NCBI GenBank assembly: GCA_944325225.1
Contig: CALUZQ010000002.1
Location: forward strand, 1-64,000
Length of the DNA stretch: 64,000 bases
Reading direction: 5' to 3'
DNA from: an uncultured Elusimicrobiales bacterium
Lineage (GTDB): Bacteria; Elusimicrobiota; Elusimicrobia; Elusimicrobiales; Elusimicrobiaceae
Made by a program: the position numbers and the translations under genes. The notes under the pieces were generated by a model, which was not told the DNA's origin, did no database searches, and was given only the letters and a program-made list of their open reading frames with translations. Positions within the stretch are counted from its first letter, which is position 1. Each line of letters opens with the position of its first letter. Of the stretch, positions 6,606 to 35,468 are shown in pieces.

Positions 6606-8253
6606 TGGTTTCTACTCCTTGGGCTTTGGCTACCGCATCTAATGCGCTTCCCGTATTTAACGGCGTGTCCGCCAATGTTTTGGCGCTTTGCAGCGCTTGC
6701 GCCAACTGCGCCTGCTGCTGAGCCGCCTGTTGGGCTTTTGCGCGGTTCTGCCGCGTATTTTGCACCTCTTCTTCCGCCCGTATCATTTTGGGCGTGGCCC
6801 CGATAGCCGCCAGACCCTCGCGCAGCGCTCCGTCAAAATCCAAGTTATCCATAACGGACGGGTTTGCGTTTGCCAGTTCCTCCGCAAAAGAGAACCCTTG
6901 CCTAATGGTATTTAGCGCGGCGGCTTTTTGCGCCTGGGCAATCATAGATATGTACGAAACATGCAATTCCCGTCCCTGTATTTCTTCCGGCGGCTGAGGA
7001 AGTATACCCGCACGCAGGCAGATATTAAATGTGCGTTCAATTAATGGGTCTAAGAGTTCGTTTTTCAGCCGCTCCAAAACCGGGCCAAGCATCATCATTT
7101 TTTCTTGCGTGCGTTCGGCCACTTCGGTAGCGGTCATTTTTCCGGCGTCCACATTGGATATCATCAGAAACATATCGGCAAAAAACTGTTTTGAAATCTG
7201 CGCTTTGGTTTGCTCAATGATATACGAGAGCGATTTCAAATCCGTATTTGCCTGGAATACGGGCTTTACGCCCGCGTCCGTATTGGAGTTGTAGCGTGTA
7301 ATTCCGCCGGGAAGCAAATTAATTTCCCCTTGTACGCCAGCCGAAACTTGCACGGGTGGATTTGTGGCTTTATCCAAAGCCACGAGCATAGTCTTTTGCA
7401 ATTTTTGAAGCATTTTCACATCGCCAAGCGTCGTCCAGCCCGGTGCGTGCCCATATACATCGCTGACGCGGTTTAATTCCCATCTTGCGGCAATTACCGG
7501 GAAATCCTCGTATCCGCTTTCCCGCAGAAAACCGTTTTGTCCGTCCATAAAATACACGGACACCCACGGCATATTTTTGTTTCCGTCCTGCCCCGGTTTT
7601 CTGTCCGTATTGGGTGTGATTAAGTGGCAGATTTTGTGCGTGGAAGTAAATTGTTTGTTCTTAAACTGCTGTTTCACAGCCATCGGTACATTGTCCAACC
7701 CAAACTGTTGCACCATTTGCCAGGTGGTCATATAGAATTCACGGGCAAAGCGGTCAACCCGTCCGAAATCGTTTTCCCCAAGCATAAATTCGCCGATGGT
7801 CATTGCGCGGGCGTGAACCACGGTATCGTAGTTTTCTTCCAGCAAAAAGGCGGCCGTTCCGAATACGGCAATTTCCTGATAAAAATGGTGCAGTGTGCCA
7901 TATACATTTGACTTGGCAAACACATTTTCTATGGTCTGTTTTACGTCATAAAGCCAGCGTTTTACGGTGTTGGAGTGGTCTTTTTGGTCATCCAAGGTAA
8001 GTTCAAACCAAGGTCTAGAGGGGCTGGTCAGCCCGCTTACCATTCCGGCGCACAGGATTTCCACGGCCATTAAGGGCGAAGAATCAAGTAGTACTTTGTG
8101 GTCAATTTTTCTTCCCCGTTTAGAAATGGCGTCATCGTCAAAACTTCCGGCACTTGGCGCGAGATAGCGACCTATTTCCTTCCAGGTTGATATCCACAAA
8201 TCCCGGTCATTTTTTAAATCGTTAAAAATACGCTGAGCTTCTGCTTTTTGCAT
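6598..8253 (-). CDS. Portal protein (podovirus head-tail connector)
   Basis: A 551-residue portal of the podovirus head-tail connector family. The N-terminus has the typical helical start EAQRIFNDLKNDRDLW and then WKEIGRYLAPSAG, with the DSSPLMAVEILCAGMVSGLTSP motif near residues 58-80 (two parts around the Ala-Val). The middle holds the wing and stem, and the C-terminal 60 residues are Gln/Ala-rich, as in other podovirus portals with a helical barrel. It lies in the expected place between terminase and scaffold. Confidence 0.9.
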   Translation of the reverse strand: MQKAEAQRIFNDLKNDRDLWISTWKEIGRYLAPSAGSFDDDAISKRGRKIDHKVLLDSSPLMAVEILCAGMVSGLTSPSRPWFELTLDDQKDHSNTVKRWLYDVKQTIENVFAKSNVYGTLHHFYQEIAVFGTAAFLLEENYDTVVHARAMTIGEFMLGENDFGRVDRFAREFYMTTWQMVQQFGLDNVPMAVKQQFKNKQFTSTHKICHLITPNTDRKPGQDGNKNMPWVSVYFMDGQNGFLRESGYEDFPVIAARWELNRVSDVYGHAPGWTTLGDVKMLQKLQKTMLVALDKATNPPVQVSAGVQGEINLLPGGITRYNSNTDAGVKPVFQANTDLKSLSYIIEQTKAQISKQFFADMFLMISNVDAGKMTATEVAERTQEKMMMLGPVLERLKNELLDPLIERTFNICLRAGILPQPPEEIQGRELHVSYISMIAQAQKAAALNTIRQGFSFAEELANANPSVMDNLDFDGALREGLAAIGATPKMIRAEEEVQNTRQNRAKAQQAAQQQAQLAQALQSAKTLADTPLNTGSALDAVAKAQGVETNA

Positions 8254-8256
8254 AAG

Positions 8257-8577
8257 TTACCCCATTGTGGTCCGCGTGGCCGTTCCGGTAAGCGAGGTAC
8301 CGGCCGTTCTGGGCAAACCAAGAGCCCCTTTCCGGCTGGTCAACACGGAGCTTCGGTTCATAACCGCCGTTCTTCTCTTGCGCTCGGCGTCCGCGGCCGC
8401 CGTATCGGTGTTGGATATAGCGTCAGGTCCTTTTCTCTCCAGCGCAGCTTGCTTTCGGTTTTCTGCTTCCTGCTGGATTTGAGCGGCTTCTCTGGCGGCT
8501 TTTCTTTGGTCGCTAGAACTTTTAGCGGCAAATCCAAGTCCGGCTAATGCTCCAATTGCTGTAAAAGGGTCGCACAT
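8257..8577 (-). CDS. Small phage protein with MCDP start, Gly/Ala helix
   Basis: A 106-residue protein between terminase and portal, starting MCDPFTAIGALAGLGFAAKS. A short hydrophobic Gly/Ala segment is followed by a charged, Gln/Ala/Arg-rich helix and a Thr/Gly-rich tail. Proteins of this type are common in podovirus head clusters and are often annotated as internal or head-associated proteins, but no function is certain. The strong AGGAGGAA ribosome binding site upstream of ATG 8577 and the 3-bp gap to the portal gene support it as real. Confidence 0.7.
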   Translation of the reverse strand: MCDPFTAIGALAGLGFAAKSSSDQRKAAREAAQIQQEAENRKQAALERKGPDAISNTDTAAADAERKRRTAVMNRSSVLTSRKGALGLPRTAGTSLTGTATRTTMG

Positions 8578-8589
8578 GGGTTGTTCCTC

Positions 8590-9954
8590 CTAAATCACAT
8601 CGTATTCCGTCCGGGCAAAACTGGCCTTTGCGCCCGAACGCAAAAAATCTTTGGGAAGCGGCGCAATCATACTGGCCATGACGGCCGCGTCTGCAAAATC
8701 GGGTGATTTCCCGCTTTCTTTGCGCCACTCTTTCTTCTGCTGCAAGACGCGCTGTCCCTTATTGTTAAATTCATACATCCGCGCCCCCAGTTCACTAATC
8801 ACGCGGTCATCCCGTAAAAACACTTTCCCGGCCTCCGCGTCCCGCGCCAATTCAAAATACCCCTGCGTCGTGCGGTTGGCATACGGGCCGGTAAGCGGCG
8901 TGTTATGGTATTCTTCAAACACGATGCGCTTACCGTCGCACAAAGCGCGCACATTGTCTATAATCGGCCCGCCCACACCGTCGCCGTCCATAGCACATTG
9001 GTCCACCTTGCCCCGCGTTAATACTTCGGCAATTTTTCCTTGGGTAAATACGGCGTCCGTACCGCCCCAAGAAACTACTTCTCTTTCAACCAAACTGCCG
9101 TCTGATCTGCGATCCGCCACAAAAATCACATTGTTGTCACCGCCGAACCGCGCCAAGTCAATGCCCGCCACGCGGCAGACTACTTCAGCCGGCTGAGGAT
9201 TCTCTCTCATACGCTGTCCGGCCCCTTGCCCGAACACAGAATTGAAGGTAGCGATAAAGGCGTTTTCGTCGTTTTCGTACTCTTGCAAAAACATCCCTTC
9301 GCCCTGTTCCTGTCCGTATTGGGCACCGTATTCGGCTTTAATTTTGTCTAATTGTTCTTTGCTAAAAACGCCGGCTTCGCTGGCGCGCACATAAGAACAC
9401 AGCCATTGGGGATTAGTTTTTGCATAATGTGCCATTTCGGTAAAATGATTTTGTCCGCGTACCGTGGAATTGAATACTACCCATCCGTCATTTTCATCTA
9501 AAATTGGCTTTAAATATCCCCACGCTTCCGGCTTGCAAAGGGCGTATTCGCTAAACACGATTCCGGCGCATCCGGAACCTACCAAAGAGTCGTAGTTATC
9601 ACTTCCGCACAGCTGCCAAACGGAGCCGTTTTTGAAAACGATTTTCATTTCCGTGTCGTTGGTGCTGGAGCGGATTTCTTTGGGGAAAGCCCAATCAATG
9701 CGTCGGATTCCCGTGTGCGCGTCCACCGCGTCCCAAATAGCTTTTCGTGCCTGCGCATATTGGGGGAGCATGTGCCAATAGGTTCCGGGCTTTTTCATGA
9801 GCTGTATAGCCGTCAAATGCAGGCAAACATCATCCTTTCCGTGGCGGCGCGGCCACACCAATACGGCGCGTTTTCCGCCGTTTGCAAAATAGGCAAGCAC
9901 CGGCAGCTGGTACGGGCGAGGGTTCCAATTGTTTGGAATTATAACGGAGGTCAT
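8590..9954 (-). CDS. Terminase large subunit (DNA packaging motor)
   Basis: A 454-residue TerL. The ATPase Walker A is WPRRHGKD near residues 34-41, and the Walker B-like segment is GIVFSEYAL near residues 130-138. The C-terminal nuclease begins with AGIDLARFGGDNN near residue 263, with the first catalytic Asp, and a later DGDGVGGPI segment and PDFADAA, with further metal-binding Asp residues. The protein cuts and packages phage DNA. ATG 9954 overlaps the terS stop and is preceded by GGAGGA. Confidence 0.93.
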   Translation of the reverse strand: MTSVIIPNNWNPRPYQLPVLAYFANGGKRAVLVWPRRHGKDDVCLHLTAIQLMKKPGTYWHMLPQYAQARKAIWDAVDAHTGIRRIDWAFPKEIRSSTNDTEMKIVFKNGSVWQLCGSDNYDSLVGSGCAGIVFSEYALCKPEAWGYLKPILDENDGWVVFNSTVRGQNHFTEMAHYAKTNPQWLCSYVRASEAGVFSKEQLDKIKAEYGAQYGQEQGEGMFLQEYENDENAFIATFNSVFGQGAGQRMRENPQPAEVVCRVAGIDLARFGGDNNVIFVADRRSDGSLVEREVVSWGGTDAVFTQGKIAEVLTRGKVDQCAMDGDGVGGPIIDNVRALCDGKRIVFEEYHNTPLTGPYANRTTQGYFELARDAEAGKVFLRDDRVISELGARMYEFNNKGQRVLQQKKEWRKESGKSPDFADAAVMASMIAPLPKDFLRSGAKASFARTEYDVI

Positions 9955-10553
9955 TTTTCTTCCTCCCGTTTTTCGTCCGTACCAGCGTTACTGGAGGACT
10001 GGGCCACTTTGGAGTAGTCCACGGTTTGCACAATCACACTAGGCCCGATAGCCACCATTTCCTTTTCCGGCTTAAACAGCCCGTGAATTTGGGCAATTTT
10101 CACAAGCGCGTCAAAGCTGTCCTTGCCCCCTTCACGGGCCAAAGCGGTCAGGCGCTCCATCGTCTCCGTCGGGGACATAAGAGCGCGTTCAGCCAGCTGT
10201 TTGCGGATAGCGTCAATTCTTGCCTCCACCTTGCCCAATTTTGCCAAGCGGGATGCTTTTGGATAAACGGTATTTAGATTTTCAGTTTTACAGGCGGGGT
10301 GGGATAATCGGTAGGATTCCAATTTGGAATATCCGCGGGCCACGAGCCCAGCGAACACTTCTTGCGCCCAAGTTAATCCGTCTTTATTTTTTGGGTTTTT
10401 GCGCTCAAGTTCCGCATTGGCATCGGCAAATTCTTCAAACAGACAGAGCTGTCTGTTTGGCTGCGCAACCGGTTTTAGCAGCAGGTCTTTGGCTTCCTGT
10501 GCAATTTCCTCAAAAACGGCCATATCACGCGATTTGCCCGGCTTTTTTGCCAT
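9951..10553 (-). CDS. Terminase small subunit
   Basis: A 200-residue protein directly upstream of terL, overlapping it by 4 bp. The helix-turn-helix region is about residues 64-110 (GLTWAQEVFAGLV, then YSKLESYRLSHPACK and VYPKASRLAKLGKV), the style of TerS DNA-binding domains. A C-terminal segment TMERLTALAREGGKDSF follows. I chose ATG 10553 over the upstream in-frame TTG at 10568 because the TTG lies within the stem of a terminator hairpin. ATG 10553 directly follows the U-run of that hairpin, with GGGGCG as the only possible ribosome binding site. This suggests that terS translation and transcription are both controlled by the leader. Confidence 0.85.
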   Translation of the reverse strand: MAKKPGKSRDMAVFEEIAQEAKDLLLKPVAQPNRQLCLFEEFADANAELERKNPKNKDGLTWAQEVFAGLVARGYSKLESYRLSHPACKTENLNTVYPKASRLAKLGKVEARIDAIRKQLAERALMSPTETMERLTALAREGGKDSFDALVKIAQIHGLFKPEKEMVAIGPSVIVQTVDYSKVAQSSSNAGTDEKREEEK

Positions 10554-10590
10554 AAAAAAACGCCCCAACCGATTAAATTCGGCGAAGCGT
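10554..10590 (-). terminator. Intrinsic terminator abutting the terS start codon
   Basis: On the minus strand ACGCTTCGCCGA pairs with TCGGTTGGGGCGT (several G-U pairs, one bulge) across a 6-nt loop. Seven T residues follow and run directly into ATG 10553. A terminator between the late promoter and the first late gene would keep late genes off unless it is overcome. Confidence 0.65.
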
Positions 10591-10605
10591 CATTTTGCGA
10601 ACCAA
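10585..10605 (-). promoter_or_regulatory. 21-bp leader element shared with the early leader (late copy)
   Basis: On the plus strand it reads AAGCGT, then CA, then TTTTGCGAACCAA. It matches 19 of 21 positions at 18792-18812 in the early-operon leader, in the same orientation relative to transcription. It overlaps the 5' arm of the leader terminator by six bases. Its place between promoter and terminator in both operons suggests a recognition site for an antiterminator, or an RNA element. Confidence 0.55.
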
Positions 10606-10646: not shown

Positions 10647-10675
10647 AGTATAGAGAAAATTTTTTAAAAAGTCAA
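10647..10675 (-). promoter_or_regulatory. Candidate late promoter
   Basis: On the minus strand TTGACT (10675-10670), a 17-bp spacer and TATACT (10652-10647) form a near-consensus sigma-70 promoter. It lies in an AT-rich gap between the early and late operons and would start transcription about 90 bases before terS. The 10554-10707 stretch contains no gene and consists of this promoter and the leader. Confidence 0.65.
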
Positions 10676-10707: not shown

Positions 10708-10911
10708 TTAATTTAACGCCGAATTTGCAACACGCACCGCCGCCGAAACAGAGAAAAAAATATCATCTTCCCAAAGCGTCCAAATTTTATCTTCACAGCG
10801 CACGCTCCACACGCCGCGGCAGGCGTCCAACGCAACGCCGTGGCGAACGCGGAATCCGTCCAAAAAGCAAACCGGCGCGGGGAAATTAGAATTTTTCTTT
10901 GGCTTTGTCAT
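10708..10911 (-). CDS. Hypothetical small phage protein
   Basis: A 67-residue protein with ATG at 10911, overlapping the previous gene by 26 bp. It reads as a compact beta-rich domain (VCFLDGFRVRHGVALDACRG, then VWSVRCEDKIWTLWEDDIFF). I do not recognise the family. It is the last gene of the early operon before the late promoter region. Confidence 0.55.
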   Translation of the reverse strand: MTKPKKNSNFPAPVCFLDGFRVRHGVALDACRGVWSVRCEDKIWTLWEDDIFFSVSAAVRVANSALN

Positions 10912-11329
10912 ACACTTCGTCCTTGTAAAAACTCCGTTCTGTCGGGCGCTGGAGCTGCAAGGAAAGCAGGGCCCGCACCAGCCGCACTTTCAAGGCGATA
11001 TCTGCCTTTCCGTCGGGTGTTTCGTACATTTCGCGGGGCAGGAAAAAATCCCGCAGCGCGGTAAGCACCCGGCGGGTGGCGGAATGAAGGGTAAAAAAAG
11101 CATACTCTTTCTTTTCCGTGCCGTCAGGCGTAATGCGGGTTATTTGTTGGATTTTTCCGCAATATACGCAAATGGTCTTATAGCAGACCACATGTGCCGG
11201 CCCGTCCGCTTTCACATGCAGGAACACCGGCATACTGCACAGGCCAGCTTTACCGCAAAATTGACAAGTCCGTGCCGGTTTCGCCGGATCGCTTTCTTCC
11301 CTTCCAAACTTTCGTTTGTATGGTGTCAT
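10886..11329 (-). CDS. Zinc-ribbon-like phage protein
   Basis: A 147-residue protein with two Cys pairs, CQFCG near residues 22-26 and CVYCG near residues 54-58, that could form a zinc ribbon. The rest is helical, with TRRVLTALRDFFLP and VRLVRALLSLQLQ. Its ATG overlaps the stop of the replication gene (ATGA). The family is unknown to me; the position suggests a role in replication or in the early-late switch. Confidence 0.65.
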   Translation of the reverse strand: MTPYKRKFGREESDPAKPARTCQFCGKAGLCSMPVFLHVKADGPAHVVCYKTICVYCGKIQQITRITPDGTEKKEYAFFTLHSATRRVLTALRDFFLPREMYETPDGKADIALKVRLVRALLSLQLQRPTERSFYKDEVYDKAKEKF

Positions 11330-16289: not shown

Positions 16290-16461
16290 TCTCTACACCG
16301 TGAACGCTTCCGGTCGGACGCGAAAAGCAAATTGCTCTCACATATATTCCTTTTGCCACACAGATATGGCACAGGTCTTTGGAGGGGGAAAACCCCCTGC
16401 ACACACTCGGCCCGATTACAAATGTGTCAAATTCTTCCTGTTTCTTTCTGGTCATACCCAT
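16234..16461 (-). CDS. Possible small Cys-containing phage protein
   Basis: A 75-residue reading frame that fills the gap between two genes, overlapping the next by 56 bp and the previous by 10 bp. It has a CHIC pair and other Cys residues (SVCRGFS, AICFSR). The large overlap with 16026-16289 is a warning, but without it a 160-bp gap would remain in a packed operon. The family is unknown. Confidence 0.45.
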   Translation of the reverse strand: MGMTRKKQEEFDTFVIGPSVCRGFSPSKDLCHICVAKGIYVRAICFSRPTGSVHGVENERKQLQAVEEVFNREKA

Positions 16462-16937
16462 ATCTCCGGAACGCTTGACGGGAAAAACGCCGGTATCCCT
16501 TCCTGTTTGTACATGCGGACCACTCTTTCGTCGTCGTCAACCGCCATCAGCGGGACCGGGCCGCCGGGTTTTCCAAGCGATTCCTCTTTTCGCAAAACCG
16601 AAAGCATTTTTTTCTTCAACAGATGGTCGGCCGTTTTATCGCCTTTCGGGCGCATCAGCACCTTATCCACAGAAACGCCCTTTTCCTTCAGCCAAGCCAT
16701 TGTATTGGGCCGCAGTTTTTCGCTGCGGGCCGTTAGAACAAACACGGCAATTTTGTCCAGTTTTAAAGCACGGGCAAAGCAAATGAAATCCATATTAGCC
16801 ACCGCATTGGGGCAGCGCCGCGCAAATAAAGCATAGTCCCTGTCATCGCCGTATTCCCGGCGGAATGTGTTTTCGCACAGTACTCCGTCCAGGTCAAGCA
16901 GAACCGCTGCTTGCGCGGGTTGTTGGTTTTTAGACAT
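16452..16937 (-). CDS. HAD-superfamily phosphatase (PNKP-3'-phosphatase-like)
   Basis: A 161-residue HAD protein. Motif I is LLDLDGVLCE near residues 13-22 (Asp nucleophile), motif II is VLTARSEK near residues 64-71, and motif IV is AVDDDERVV near residues 130-138; a conserved Lys lies at RPKGDKT. It resembles the phosphatase half of phage polynucleotide kinase/phosphatases, though no kinase half is present. The start at ATG 16937 overlaps the stop of the 39-residue peptide gene; the ATG at 16967 lies deep inside it and is less likely. Confidence 0.75.
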   Translation of the reverse strand: MSKNQQPAQAAVLLDLDGVLCENTFRREYGDDRDYALFARRCPNAVANMDFICFARALKLDKIAVFVLTARSEKLRPNTMAWLKEKGVSVDKVLMRPKGDKTADHLLKKKMLSVLRKEESLGKPGGPVPLMAVDDDERVVRMYKQEGIPAFFPSSVPEIWV

Positions 16938-17049
16938 ATTCTTTTTCTTCCTTTTCCTTTTGAGCATTTCTGCATTTCCGGCAGATTCCCAGGTGGGGTT
17001 CCAGGCCGGGTTTTAATCGTTTATAGCACCGTGTGCAAAATTTATCCAT
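16930..17049 (-). CDS. 39-residue zinc-ribbon peptide
   Basis: ATG 17049 to TAA 16930 encodes a peptide with FCTRCYKRL and GICRKCRNA, two CxxC pairs 19 residues apart, the minimal plan of a zinc ribbon. A Lys/Glu tail follows. It overlaps the start of the phosphatase gene. The role is unknown; small zinc ribbons of this size can act on RNA polymerase or nucleases. Confidence 0.6.
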   Translation of the reverse strand: MDKFCTRCYKRLKPGLEPHLGICRKCRNAQKEKEEKEYV

Positions 17050-18241: not shown

Positions 18242-18370
18242 CTAAAACTGTGCGTCAAATGCAGCTCCAAAAAGTACGGAAAAAGTAAATGCGGCCGCAA
18301 TTCCTACCGCAAACAAGCTGAAGGGGCTCCACTCCTGCGGATTAGAAACCGTCCAAATAAATTTTTTCAT
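18242..18370 (-). CDS. 42-residue membrane peptide
   Basis: ATG 18370 to TAG 18242 encodes 42 residues with one membrane segment (FSLFAVGIAAAFTFSVLFGA) and a short N-terminal part. A strong AGGAGG lies at its 3' end for the next gene. The role is unknown. Confidence 0.55.
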   Translation of the reverse strand: MKKFIWTVSNPQEWSPFSLFAVGIAAAFTFSVLFGAAFDAQF

Positions 18371-18624
18371 TAGTAATCCTCCCTCTTGTTGTAGATCCGT
18401 TCCACATCCGCCAGTACATACACTTTATGACCCCTAATATATCTATCCAACGGGCGCAGCCCTTTGCGTTTGTAAGTGGTAGATAAGGCCTGGGCGGAAC
18501 ATTCCAGCAGGTTTAGTACGGCCGTGCGTTTTAAAAACACATTCCCCACCCGGTCCACGATTAAGTCCTCTTTCGGGAATGCTTTTATGTCCAATTTCAT
18601 AAGGGTTTCTTTATCTGCCAACAT
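18370..18624 (-). CDS. Helix-turn-helix protein, first gene of the early operon
   Basis: An 84-residue protein from ATG 18624, with GAGG six bases upstream; an in-frame TTG at 18660 is less likely. The region TAVLNLLECSAQALSTTYKR near residues 34-53 and the end GHKVYVLADVERIYNKR resemble small MerR/excisionase-like winged helices. As the first leftward gene it could be an excisionase, a Cro-like regulator or an early-late regulator. The sequence does not decide between these. Confidence 0.65.
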   Translation of the reverse strand: MLADKETLMKLDIKAFPKEDLIVDRVGNVFLKRTAVLNLLECSAQALSTTYKRKGLRPLDRYIRGHKVYVLADVERIYNKREDY

Positions 18625-18682
18625 ATAATGCCTCACAAATCTTTGCGCCAGTTCCCCCAAAACGGGTGGAATATGCTAAACT

Positions 18683-18729
18683 AAATAAAAGACCGTACAG
18701 GACTCTCTGCTAAGACTCCCCGTACGGTC
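18683..18729 (-). terminator. Intrinsic terminator in the early-operon leader
   Basis: GACCGTAC (18691-18698) and GTACGGTC (18722-18729) form an 8-bp stem that continues inward as GGGA/TCCT in the minus-strand transcript. It is followed by TTTTATTT. It lies between the early promoter and the first early gene, mirroring the late leader. Confidence 0.65.
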
Positions 18730-18791
18730 AGGTTCGCAATCAGGCCGCTTACGCCTTTTTGCGCACAAAACTTTTTATACTGCAATTGTTT

Positions 18792-18812
18792 AAGCGTTTT
18801 TTTGCGAACCAA
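18792..18812 (-). promoter_or_regulatory. 21-bp leader element shared with the late leader (early copy)
   Basis: On the plus strand it reads AAGCGT, then TT, then TTTTGCGAACCAA and differs at only two positions from 10585-10605. Within this leader its GGTTCGCAA can pair with TTGCGAACC about 60 bases downstream (18731-18739). A second hairpin (18831-18837 with 18847-18853) lies between it and the promoter. Confidence 0.55.
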
Positions 18813-18866
18813 CCCGTTTTTCGGGGCTACACCGCTTCCCAAGGACAAGCGGTAAAAGTTTCCTTT

Positions 18867-18896
18867 GTTTCATATATTATGAAACATTTGAAACAA
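18867..18896. promoter_or_regulatory. Repressor operator cluster
   Basis: GTTTCATA-TAT-TATGAAAC (18867-18885) is a perfect 8-bp-arm palindrome. A further TGAAACA half-site starts ten bases after the second one (18890-18896). The cluster overlaps the early promoter -10 region and is the likely binding site of the repressor encoded at 18938. Confidence 0.65.
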
Positions 18897-18904
18897 TTTG
18901 TCAA
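18876..18904 (-). promoter_or_regulatory. Leftward early promoter
   Basis: On the minus strand TTGACA (18904-18899), a 17-bp spacer and CATAAT (18881-18876) form a strong sigma-70 promoter. The -10 box lies within the operator palindrome, so repressor binding would block it. The transcript has a leader of about 245 bases before the first gene. The 18625-18937 gap consists of this leader and the control region. Confidence 0.75.
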
Positions 18905-18937: not shown

Positions 18938-19594
18938 ATGAACGAATTTGTAAAAATGTTGACCAAATGGAACAACAATCTGGAGCGCGGTGCGCAAATT
19001 CGTCTATCCGAAAAATTAGGAGTTTCACGGGGATTAGTTTCCAAGTGGGTATCCGGTGAAGCAAAGCCCGGAGCGGACTATATCAAGCGGATTGCAGCCG
19101 TCTTTCAATGTTCCGAACAGGAAATAAAAGCTGCGTTTGGAATAAAAGGGGCAATTCCAACCATAAACGCTTATCCAATAACCGCATATGTACCGGTACT
19201 AGGCACAGTGAAAGCAAATCGTTTTAACATCGCAGTTGTATATTCCGAGCCGGAACTCTATATGCCCACCCTAAAGAGTGGGGATAAAGACTATGCCCTT
19301 CGCGTAACGGGCGATTGCATGGAGCCGGAAATCAAGGACGACCAACTCATCATCATCCGCCCGTGCGTTATCACGGATGTGAAAGAGGGGGAAATCGTCG
19401 TGGCCCGCATGGGCGAAGAATGTACCCTCAAGCGCTTTTATCTTAAAAAGAACACCATTTGGCTCATCCCGGACAACAAAGATTACGATCCTATTTCCGG
19501 CAGCATTAAAGAAATAGAAATTATCGGCCGCGTGATAGACATTCCCCGCAAGCCCACCCGCAAGCGCCGCCCGGATTTTTTAGAGGATAAATAA
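18938..19594 (+). CDS. CI/LexA-like prophage repressor with Cys nucleophile
   Basis: A 218-residue protein. Residues about 17-60 hold a helix-turn-helix (LSEKLGVSRGLVSKWVSGEA), and residues about 80-200 a peptidase S24-type domain. The usual GDSM motif is GDCMEP here (Cys127); the general base Lys is in CTLKRFY (Lys165). The expected Ala-Gly cleavage bond would be at LGTVKANR, where the sequence is Ala93-Asn94. These changes suggest altered or lost self-cleavage and so an altered SOS response. It maintains lysogeny by binding the operators upstream. Confidence 0.88.
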   Translation: MNEFVKMLTKWNNNLERGAQIRLSEKLGVSRGLVSKWVSGEAKPGADYIKRIAAVFQCSEQEIKAAFGIKGAIPTINAYPITAYVPVLGTVKANRFNIAVVYSEPELYMPTLKSGDKDYALRVTGDCMEPEIKDDQLIIIRPCVITDVKEGEIVVARMGEECTLKRFYLKKNTIWLIPDNKDYDPISGSIKEIEIIGRVIDIPRKPTRKRRPDFLEDK

Positions 19595-20218: not shown

Positions 20219-21394
20219 ATGGCAGATAAAATTTCCAGCTTCAAACGCCCGGGCCGTACCGGCCGCCGCTACCGCAAGCAAATTAATGGCCGGCGGTACG
20301 AGATTTTTTTGCGCGGCAATAAGGAACAGCGCGAAACGCAATACAAGCGTTGGGTAGAAAAGCTGGAAAGAGAAAACAAATCCCGCAAATTTGACGGTTC
20401 AAAGACATGGGAATACTTCGCCAGCGCCTTCCTTAAATTCATGCGAAGCGAAAAGGATTTTAAGACGGGGCGAAACATTTGGCGCACCCGTACTATTGCC
20501 GAATACCAGTATGCTTTTGATCATTTTAAAGACATTATTCGCCCACATTATGTGCAGGATTTGCGTCCGGAAGATTTAGCCGCCTTTCGCCGCGCCCGCG
20601 CCCAGGAAGCCATAGAGAAGGGGGACGATAATTACGGCGTAAACAAAGATATGGGCTGCCTGCTGCGCGCCTTTGATTGGGGGATGTCCGAAGGGTACAT
20701 ACCTTTTATGGACCTTACCCCGCTTCGCAATACGCCCAAACGGACCAGCGCGCCTATCGTCAAAGTGCTTTCTCCGTGGGAACTCTCTATGCTTTTAAAG
20801 TATAGCTCTCCTGCTATGCGTGTGGCCACGCGCATGGGCTTTGAAGGCAATTTGCGCCCGGAAGAAATGTACAATTTTCTTATAAGCAAAATTGACATGA
20901 AAACGGGTATTGCCTGGGTGTCGCACAATGACGAAGATAAAAAAGCCGGCATTCGCGCGTGGACAGTCAAACGGGATAAAGAGCGCCCTGTATTTTTTAC
21001 GCCGCAAACCATAGCGGATATTCTTTCCTTAAATCCAAAGACTTACATTTTAACCAATTCCAACGGGAAACCGTTTGACGACAGCACCTTCTCAAAGGAA
21101 TGGCGGAGCAATCTAGAGAAGGTAAACGATGAAATTTTGCGCCATGAAAAAGACGCTCCCAAAATTTTATGCACCTACAAAGCGCTGCGCAAAACGCACA
21201 CCACCTATATGATGCGTGCCGGTGCGAAAGAAAAGGATGTTTCGCTCTATGTGTCTCATGCAGATACAAAAACAACCGAACGGCATTACATAGACAAAGA
21301 AACTCTGCGAAAAGCGGAAAATCAAAAGCGTTTGGCGCATTTAGAGGCAATGAAACAGTTTGTTCTTAAACTGCCCGAAATGATTGAAAAATAG
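20219..21394 (+). CDS. Tyrosine-recombinase integrase
   Basis: A 391-residue integrase. The N-terminal arm- and core-binding regions span about residues 1-170 (SAM-like domain with TIAEYQYAFDHFKDIIRPHY). Catalytic residues visible are Arg213 (EGNLRPEEMY), Arg324 in CTYKALRKTHTTYM, His347 (YVSHADTKT) and Tyr357 (ERHYID). The box II position that is usually His (HxLR) is Lys321 here. It integrates the phage at the neighbouring tRNA-Ser and faces it directly. Confidence 0.92.
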   Translation: MADKISSFKRPGRTGRRYRKQINGRRYEIFLRGNKEQRETQYKRWVEKLERENKSRKFDGSKTWEYFASAFLKFMRSEKDFKTGRNIWRTRTIAEYQYAFDHFKDIIRPHYVQDLRPEDLAAFRRARAQEAIEKGDDNYGVNKDMGCLLRAFDWGMSEGYIPFMDLTPLRNTPKRTSAPIVKVLSPWELSMLLKYSSPAMRVATRMGFEGNLRPEEMYNFLISKIDMKTGIAWVSHNDEDKKAGIRAWTVKRDKERPVFFTPQTIADILSLNPKTYILTNSNGKPFDDSTFSKEWRSNLEKVNDEILRHEKDAPKILCTYKALRKTHTTYMMRAGAKEKDVSLYVSHADTKTTERHYIDKETLRKAENQKRLAHLEAMKQFVLKLPEMIEK

Positions 21395-21493: not shown

Positions 21494-21581
21494 AAAGAAT
21501 TGAAACAAATTTATTGATTTATCGTCATAAAAAATCCAAAAAAGAACCCGCTTCTTCCTAGAAACGGGTTGTAGAGTGAAA

Positions 21582-21666
21582 CGGAGAGGGAGGGATTTGA
21601 ACCCTCGAAACCTTGCGGTTTACAGGTTTTCGAGACCTGCTGTTTCAACCACTCACACACCTCTCC
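21582..21666 (-). tRNA. tRNA-Ser(CGA)
   Basis: The minus strand folds as a tRNA with a long variable arm, as in tRNA-Ser. The 7-bp acceptor stem is GGAGAGG/CCTCTCC with discriminator G; the anticodon stem CAGGT/ACCTG encloses CTCGAAA, giving anticodon CGA (codon UCG). The T arm is GAGGG-TTCGAAT-CCCTC. CCA is not encoded. Its 3' end faces the integrase, so it is the likely attachment site. Confidence 0.93.
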
Positions 21667-21761
21667 AATTATACCGTCGCCGAGTGGTGGGCATCGGGTA
21701 TCTGCCTTTATTATACAAAACTTCAGGCCGGGGACGGGTATGGTTTTAAAAAATCCGCAAT

Positions 21762-35347: not shown

Positions 35348-35416
35348 GTATGTTGTGAAAACCCCCAGCTTGGCTGGGGGTTCGGTAAAGGTTTCACCGT
35401 TGAGGAAGATAAAAAA

Positions 35417-35468
35417 CTCCTTTTGTATAATAAATTGCCTGTGTCAGCAGGCAATTTAACAAAAGGAG
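35417..35468 (+). promoter_or_regulatory. 5' leader fold hiding the transposase ribosome binding site
   Basis: CTCCTTTTGT (35417-35426) is fully complementary to ACAAAAGGAG (35459-35468), which contains the Shine-Dalgarno sequence of tnpA. Between them a second perfect 10-bp hairpin (35432-35441 with 35448-35457) stacks. The structure should block translation initiation, as is known for IS200. Confidence 0.7.

What the first reader, a model, noticed from the sequence alone, without database searches (positions are those of the whole stretch)
10585..10605. Shared 21-bp element in the leaders of the early and late operons, each before an intrinsic terminator
The element differs at two of 21 positions between 10585-10605 and 18792-18812. 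In both cases it lies downstream of a strong leftward promoter and upstream of a hairpin/T-run before the first gene. Both copies can pair with nearby sequence (GGTTCGCA arms). This layout is like lambda nut/qut or HK022 put, but I recognise no known N, Q or put homologue. It suggests an antitermination system using either an RNA or an early protein (candidates are the HTH protein 18370-18624 and the zinc-ribbon peptides).
Basis: partly seen in the sequence, partly recalled or inferred. Interest (0 to 1): 0.78.

Follow-up and report, generated by a model that had tools for sequence, protein, structure and literature searches.

The report
RNA-only late-gene switch in prophages
A family of gut prophages appears to switch on its virion genes with a small RNA copied from the early-gene leader, which base-pairs to the late-gene leader and stops a built-in transcription terminator from forming, a job that phage lambda gives to a protein (Q).

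Summary
The shared 21-bp element, both promoters and both terminators are real. It is not a protein operator or a put/nut-like cis element in the simple sense. In relatives, the element changes completely between phages, but within each phage the early leader's 3' arm stays complementary to the late leader at two collinear segments: A (the element) and B (the 5' arm of the late terminator). Five phages have both leaders (the window, L012, L054, L101, L083). Segment A has compensatory changes at 7 of 9 pairs, with no misfit (0/500 shuffles). In three phages the pairing is unmatched anywhere in the locus (0 of 6,780-8,323 windows). B complementarity is significant independently of A (combined p 6e-8). 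Sequestering A and B abolishes the terminator in silico and exposes the ribosome-binding site in its 3' arm, right before terminase small subunit. Best reading: a terminated early leader RNA acts in trans as an antiterminator, a natural counterpart of synthetic STARs, giving lambda-Q logic without a Q protein. The window itself is the weakest of the five (its B segment alone p = 0.18; cofolding not significant); the case rests on the relatives. Nothing was tested in vivo. A conserved zinc-ribbon protein remains as a rival or co-factor.

The parts
10647..10675 (-). late promoter, TTGACT-17-TATACT; no palindromic operator seen
   Evidence: sequence
10595..10603 (-). late segment A (GGTTCGCAA), target of the early RNA
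10581..10589 (-). late segment B (CGCTTCGCC), 5' arm of the late terminator, complementary with a 1-nt bulge to early GGCG-U-AAGCG
   Evidence: on its own p = 0.18 in this phage
10554..10591 (-). late intrinsic terminator; 7-U tract directly before the ATG; Shine-Dalgarno-like GGGG in the 3' arm
9951..10553 (-). terminase small subunit, first gene of the late operon
   Evidence: PHROG 51, E 1.6e-13
18876..18904 (-). early promoter, TTGACA-17-CATAAT
18867..18885 (.). palindrome GTTTCATATATTATGAAAC over the -10 region, probable repressor operator (inferred); the early promoters of relatives carry different palindromes
   Evidence: sequence
18681..18869 (-). early leader RNA, about 185 nt from promoter to terminator; proposed trans-acting antiterminator RNA
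   Evidence: structure; covariance model match, built in part from this sequence
18791..18810 (-).
18731..18755 (-). 3' arm of the early hairpin, GGCGTAAGCGGCCTGATTGCGAACC: complementary to late A and B
18691..18729 (-). early intrinsic terminator (GACCGTACGGGG...CTGTACGGTC + TTTTATTT)
   Evidence: stem conserved with double changes in relatives
18370..18624 (-). excisionase-like HTH protein, first early gene after the leader
   Evidence: weak hit to PHROG 4691 excisionase, E 0.0053; alignment
10886..11329 (-). conserved zinc-ribbon protein upstream of the late promoter; rival or co-factor
18938..19594 (+). S24/HTH phage repressor, divergent from the early promoter
   Evidence: Pfam PF00717 7.9e-25, PF01381 8.2e-9

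Best explanation
The early promoter makes a short RNA that usually stops at the leader terminator. Its 3' arm is antisense to two segments of the late leader: A, just upstream of the late terminator, and B, the 5' arm of that terminator. In the lysogen the repressor keeps the early promoter off, and late transcription starts but stops at the terminator in front of terminase small subunit. After induction the early RNA accumulates, pairs with nascent late leader at A and then B before the 3' arm of the terminator is made, prevents the hairpin, and exposes the Shine-Dalgarno sequence held in the hairpin's 3' arm, so the late operon is transcribed and translated. Shown by sequence: the leaders, the two-segment complementarity, its covariation across phages, and that B coincides with the terminator's 5' arm. 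Inferred: that the RNAs are made, that they pair in the cell, that the result is antitermination, and that the repressor controls the early promoter.
For: (1) Late leaders of relatives (L011-L015, L054, L101, L123) keep promoter - hairpin - A - terminator - ATG although the sequence of A changes. (2) An unbiased search of each late leader against its whole locus found the early leader as the longest complement: 13 + 12 nt adjacent and collinear in L012, 16 nt in L054, 13 nt in L101. (3) Two-segment score of the early arm versus its own late leader: 0 of 8,016 / 8,323 / 6,780 other windows reach it in L012 / L054 / L101; W 16 of 8,589 and L083 9 of 5,759. (4) Cross-matrix: L012, L054, L101 and L083 early RNAs each fit their own late leader (and that of close kin) best. 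(5) Segment A: 45 of 45 cells paired, 7 of 9 pairs with changes on both sides, 0/500 shuffles. (6) B is complementary independently of A: p = 0.001, 0.001, 0.001, 0.014, 0.18; Fisher 6e-8. (7) The trans match exceeds the early hairpin's own cis match in four of five phages (23 v 16, 25 v 15, 22 v 15, 17 v 8; W 12 v 13) and B extends into bases with no cis partner. (8) In all five the minimum-energy cofold of the early RNA with nascent late leader contains the A duplex, with B or B-region pairing beside it. (9) Blocking A and B removes the terminator hairpin and raises SD accessibility, e.g. L012 0.27 to 0.81, L101 0.14 to 0.78, L083 0.26 to 0.74. (10) Negative controls: five late leaders of other prophages of the genus have no such partner (best score 13-14). 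(11) L101 keeps the pairing although its TerL is only 29% identical.
Against: No expression or interaction data. In W the cofold gain (-3.9 kcal/mol) is no better than shuffles (57/100) and L054 is also not significant by that measure (21/100); RNAduplex scans rank the early leader first only in L012 and L101. W's early RNA fits L054's late leader about as well by score and better by energy. With the complete late leader the terminator wins at equilibrium, so the model needs co-transcriptional timing. The early cis hairpin must open. Only five phages have both leaders; the two early RNAs of G071 could not be tested because no late half is in that assembly. In L083 a first hairpin lies between A and B. 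A, B and segment boundaries were chosen by me after seeing them, though one search found them unbiased in three phages. No Hfq was found in the host genome, so any chaperone is unknown.
Confidence: 0.7

Rival explanations
1. A Q-like protein is the antiterminator: the conserved zinc-ribbon protein 10886-11329, encoded near the late promoter as Q is in lambda, modifies RNA polymerase at the late promoter or leader; RNA pairing is accessory.
For: The protein is conserved in W, L012, L101, L054, L123 and also in L083, L086-L088; in W it is the second-last early gene before the late promoter, a Q-like position. Late promoter-terminator-TerS leaders without an RNA partner exist in L086-L088.
Against: No Pfam, PHROG, NCBIfam or fold match to Q or another antiterminator (no fold match below E 0.001). 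It does not explain the covarying two-segment complementarity or why B is the terminator's 5' arm. In L083 the protein gene is not next to the late promoter.
Confidence: 0.2
2. The RNA pairing is real but represses: the early RNA is an antisense inhibitor that delays late genes, like P1/P7 C4 or P4 CI RNA.
For: Known phage antisense RNAs with short complementary segments are repressors (C4: PMC12197685; P4 CI from general knowledge).
Against: The pairing covers the 5' half of an intrinsic terminator whose 3' half holds the SD, so pairing removes the OFF structure; no alternative terminator is formed when A and B are blocked. The early RNA should be absent in the lysogen, when late genes need to be off (inference).
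Confidence: 0.08
3. The element is a DNA operator or loading site for a phage protein at both operons.
For: Same orientation and similar position after both promoters in W.
Against: The sequence changes completely between phages while the candidate HTH protein stays 54-57% identical; the compensation is in a complementary arm and extends into the terminator stem.
Confidence: 0.04
4. The reverse direction: the constitutively made, terminated late leader RNA is the trans-acting one, and titrates or alters the early RNA.
For: Same complementarity; lambda also makes a terminated late leader RNA (general knowledge).
Against: The early terminator does not overlap the pairing region, so pairing has no evident effect on early genes. 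It may still act as a threshold sponge.
Confidence: 0.06
5. Each leader acts only in cis (early hairpin as a put-like or stability element; late copy shared by common ancestry or chance).
For: The early 5' and 3' arms pair in cis in six of seven early leaders by the chain score, and in the folds of all seven.
Against: The trans match exceeds the cis match in four of five phages, and late leaders follow the 3' arm where the early 5' arm departs from it.
Confidence: 0.07

Closest known systems
Synthetic small transcription activating RNAs (STARs), including pT181 dual-control STARs (PMC5435934, PMC10465534)
   Same: An antisense RNA complementary to the 5' half of a terminator stem stops the terminator from forming; in the dual-control version the RBS in the 3' half is also exposed. 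This is the anatomy seen here.
   Different: STARs are engineered. Here the pair is natural, encoded in a prophage, has a second contact (A) upstream, and the RNA is the terminated leader of the early operon.
Lambda Q / qut late antitermination (PMC7171158)
   Same: Unregulated late promoter, short leader, terminator, then the late operon; an early product allows read-through.
   Different: Q is a protein needing a DNA element and a sigma-dependent pause. Here the proposed agent is an RNA acting on one terminator, not shown to be processive.
HK022 put RNA (PMC9378689)
   Same: RNA-only phage antitermination, leader position after a promoter.
   Different: put acts in cis on RNA polymerase through two stem-loops and is processive; here pairing is in trans with the target RNA and sequence-specific.
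P1/P7 C4 RNA and P4 CI RNA (PMC12197685; P4 from general knowledge)
   Same: Phage-encoded RNA complementary to a leader of the same phage at short segments presented in loops.
   Different: Those repress; this is predicted to activate.
Gifsy-1 IsrK RNA (PMC4825925)
   Same: A short prophage RNA, terminated before downstream genes, acts in trans to activate phage gene expression.
   Different: IsrK opens a ribosome-binding site on its own read-through transcript; here the target is a separate operon and the main effect is on an intrinsic terminator.
sRNA-controlled Rho-dependent termination (review PMC6582626)
   Same: sRNA pairing to a leader changes termination.
   Different: Rho-dependent; that review covers intrinsic termination of sRNAs but sRNA-regulated termination of mRNAs only for Rho.

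Membership tests
STAR-type trans RNA antiterminator | RNA complementary to the 5' half of an intrinsic terminator stem in a target leader | tested here: met
   strong in L012, L054, L101, moderate in L083, weak for the window alone
STAR-type trans RNA antiterminator | Pairing prevents the terminator and allows read-through | not testable with these tools
   In silico only: blocking A and B removes the hairpin; nascent cofold shows the duplex
STAR-type trans RNA antiterminator | RNA is transcribed as a separate, terminated molecule | tested here: inconclusive
   Promoter and terminator present and conserved; no expression data
Lambda-type Q antitermination | A Q-family protein | tested here: not met
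   No hit among the phage proteins scanned in Pfam, PHROGs, NCBIfam; zinc-ribbon fold search without significant match
Lambda-type Q antitermination | Late promoter, short leader, terminator, late operon | tested here: met
HK022 put | Two stem-loops of about 70 nt acting in cis, similar sequence at both sites | tested here: inconclusive
   The two leaders share only the 21-bp element and fold differently; no Rfam match in the window beyond two tRNAs and STnc490; RNA polymerase binding not testable
C4 / P4 CI antisense repressor RNAs | Trans RNA complementary to a leader of the same phage | tested here: met
C4 / P4 CI antisense repressor RNAs | Represses its target | not testable with these tools
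   Anatomy predicts activation
DNA operator of a shared regulator | Site sequence conserved with its conserved DNA-binding protein | tested here: not met
   Sites differ fully between phages, HTH protein 54-57% identical

The most novel reading that the evidence does not exclude
A natural trans-acting RNA antiterminator of an intrinsic terminator that serves as the early-to-late switch of a temperate phage family, replacing a Q-type protein and controlling transcription and translation of the late operon together; the specificity co-evolves freely, so related prophages in one cell need not cross-activate.
Probability: 0.6. Interest if true: 0.92.

Novelty: new variant of a known kind. Interest (0 to 1): 0.8.

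Why it matters
Phage early-to-late switches known to me use proteins (Q, sigma factors, RNA polymerases, activators). An RNA that does this job by base-pairing would be simple, sequence-programmable and fast to diverge, and would show that nature uses the design that synthetic biologists built as STARs. It would explain how related prophages in one genus keep separate late switches. It is directly testable with two-plasmid reporters and compensatory mutations.

Tried and rejected
Exact search for the 21-bp element in viral contigs found one unrelated coding match, L061: the element itself is not conserved, only the pairing. One-mismatch matches in related genomes (L001-L009) were not examined further; the reversed-pattern control gave as many or more. 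Loose-gap Smith-Waterman on whole leaders was uninformative. RNAduplex scans gave many wobble-rich false hits. Cofold energy gain as a statistic failed for W and L054. Late halves for the two early RNAs of G071 are not in that assembly. Two weak covariance-model hits (L216, L217) are not this RNA. A degenerate pattern of the early terminator in viral contigs brought only L012 again. Late leaders of other terminase types (L084-L088) have no RNA partner in the stretches fetched. Zinc-ribbon protein as Q: no support from families or fold. Genus-to-order search for the HTH gene found no other genus.

Full report
Setting. The left part of the window is the early and late region of a temperate phage with podovirus-like head and tail genes: an integrase (20219-21394) next to tRNA-Ser, an S24-type repressor (18938-19594, +), an early operon running left from about 18.8 kb, and a late operon running left from terminase small subunit (9951-10553). 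The genome is a 1.63-Mb assembly in a genus with 66 genomes held; several close relatives of the phage come from metagenome contigs.

Observation. The two copies of the element, two differences in 21, are the only ones in 64 kb and are not chance (0.08 expected). Each follows a strong leftward promoter and precedes a stable hairpin with a T-run. In the late leader the T-run ends directly at the ATG of terminase small subunit. The inverted partner of GGTTCGCA exists only in the early leader.

Relatives change the picture. Terminase-based searches gave close relatives (L011-L015, L054), and a search with the first early gene gave further early leaders in the genus (L101 = G026, L102 and L103 = G071, L083 = G023). 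All late leaders of the close group keep promoter - hairpin - element - terminator - ATG, but the element is different: GGTTCGCAAAA in the window, GGTTACAAAAG in L054, L013 and L015, GCTTATAAATAAC in L011 and L012, GCTTACAAATTG in L101 and L123. The early leaders of the same phages changed with them.

Two-segment complementarity. The relation that is kept is not identity but complementarity: the 3' arm of the early leader hairpin is antisense to the late leader at segment A (the element) and, collinearly, at segment B, which is the 5' arm of the late terminator. An unbiased k-mer search of each late leader against its whole locus put the early leader first in L012 (13 and 12 nt, adjacent), L054 (16 nt) and L101 (13 nt). 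With a two-segment score no other window in these three loci reaches the observed value (0 of 8,016, 8,323 and 6,780); in the window 16 of 8,589 and in L083 9 of 5,759 windows do. The cross-matrix of early RNAs and late leaders is dominated by cognate pairs and their close kin, except that W's early RNA scores L054's late leader equally and binds it better by energy. Segment A has 45 of 45 paired cells and 7 of 9 pairs with changes on both sides, against none in 500 shuffles. B is significant without A in L012, L054, L101 (p = 0.001 each, the limit of the test) and L083 (0.014) but not in the window (0.18); combined 6e-8. The B match reaches into apical bases of the early RNA that have no partner in the early hairpin, and in four phages the trans match exceeds the cis match.

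Why antitermination. B is the 5' half of the late terminator in all five phages. With A and B blocked, the terminator hairpin is lost and the SD-like sequence in its 3' half becomes more accessible. With nascent late leader the cofolded minimum-energy state contains the A duplex, and pairing at or beside B, in all five; with the finished leader the terminator wins, so timing matters. This is the anatomy of synthetic STARs, including the dual-control kind in which the RBS lies in the 3' half of the terminator (PMC5435934). The logic equals lambda's late switch: late promoter always available, terminator in the leader, and an early product that lets polymerase pass. The early promoters carry palindromes over or near the -10 region that differ between phages, as expected if each phage's repressor controls the early RNA (sequence; inference).

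Limits. The window on its own would not carry the claim: its B segment and its cofold energy are not significant. L054 fails the cofold statistic as well. Only five phages have both leaders. G071's two early RNAs have no late half in the assembly. All is computed; no RNA has been seen. How early genes downstream of the early terminator are expressed is open (leaky termination is the simplest guess). The host genome has no detectable Hfq.

Rivals. A Q-like protein is the strongest: a zinc-ribbon protein is conserved near the late promoter, also in prophages whose late leader has no RNA partner. It has no match to an antiterminator by family or fold, and it does not explain the covariation. Both could act together. 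A DNA operator is made very unlikely by complete change of the site beside a conserved HTH protein. A repressive antisense RNA is against the anatomy.

Known systems. In the papers searched I found no natural RNA that antiterminates an intrinsic terminator of phage late genes. The library lacks most subscription journals, so this is not proof of novelty. The review on sRNAs and termination treats sRNA control of mRNA termination for Rho only (PMC6582626). T-box leaders, where tRNA stabilises an antiterminator, are a natural trans-RNA precedent from general knowledge. IsrK (PMC4825925) is the nearest phage RNA in logic, put (PMC9378689) the nearest RNA antiterminator, and C4 the nearest two-segment antisense RNA, with opposite sign.

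Noticed in passing
window 35360-35465 (+): Rfam match to STnc490, named as an Hfq-binding RNA (64.6 bits, above the gathering score), outside the prophage, in a genome without detectable Hfq.
   Followed up: no
G000:C29:1354-2586 and 57 other genomes of the genus: 58 of 66 genomes of the genus have a relative of the phage TerL, mostly around 30% identity; possibly a widespread prophage or gene-transfer-agent-like element.
   Followed up: no
L084, L085, L086, L087, L088 upstream of terminase: Prophages with other terminases in the same genus also have a promoter, hairpin and terminator directly before the terminase genes, without a detectable RNA partner; their release mechanism is unknown.
   Followed up: partly
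window 16452-16967 (-): Early HAD-type phosphatase related to polynucleotide kinase 3'-phosphatase (PF25109, 1.5e-11), with similar genes in L012, L101 and L083.
   Followed up: no
L102, L103 (G071:C20 and C17): One genome holds two different early leaders of this kind, both cut at the contig start just after the excisionase-like gene, with no terminase small subunit found in the assembly.
   Followed up: partly
early leaders, between the two hairpin arms: A short conserved stretch (A)ACAATTTG occurs in five of seven early RNAs, with a close variant in L103 and a diverged one in W; possible binding site of an unknown protein.
   Followed up: no
window 21581-21667 (-): tRNA-Ser(CGA) beside the integrase, a likely attachment site.
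   Followed up: no
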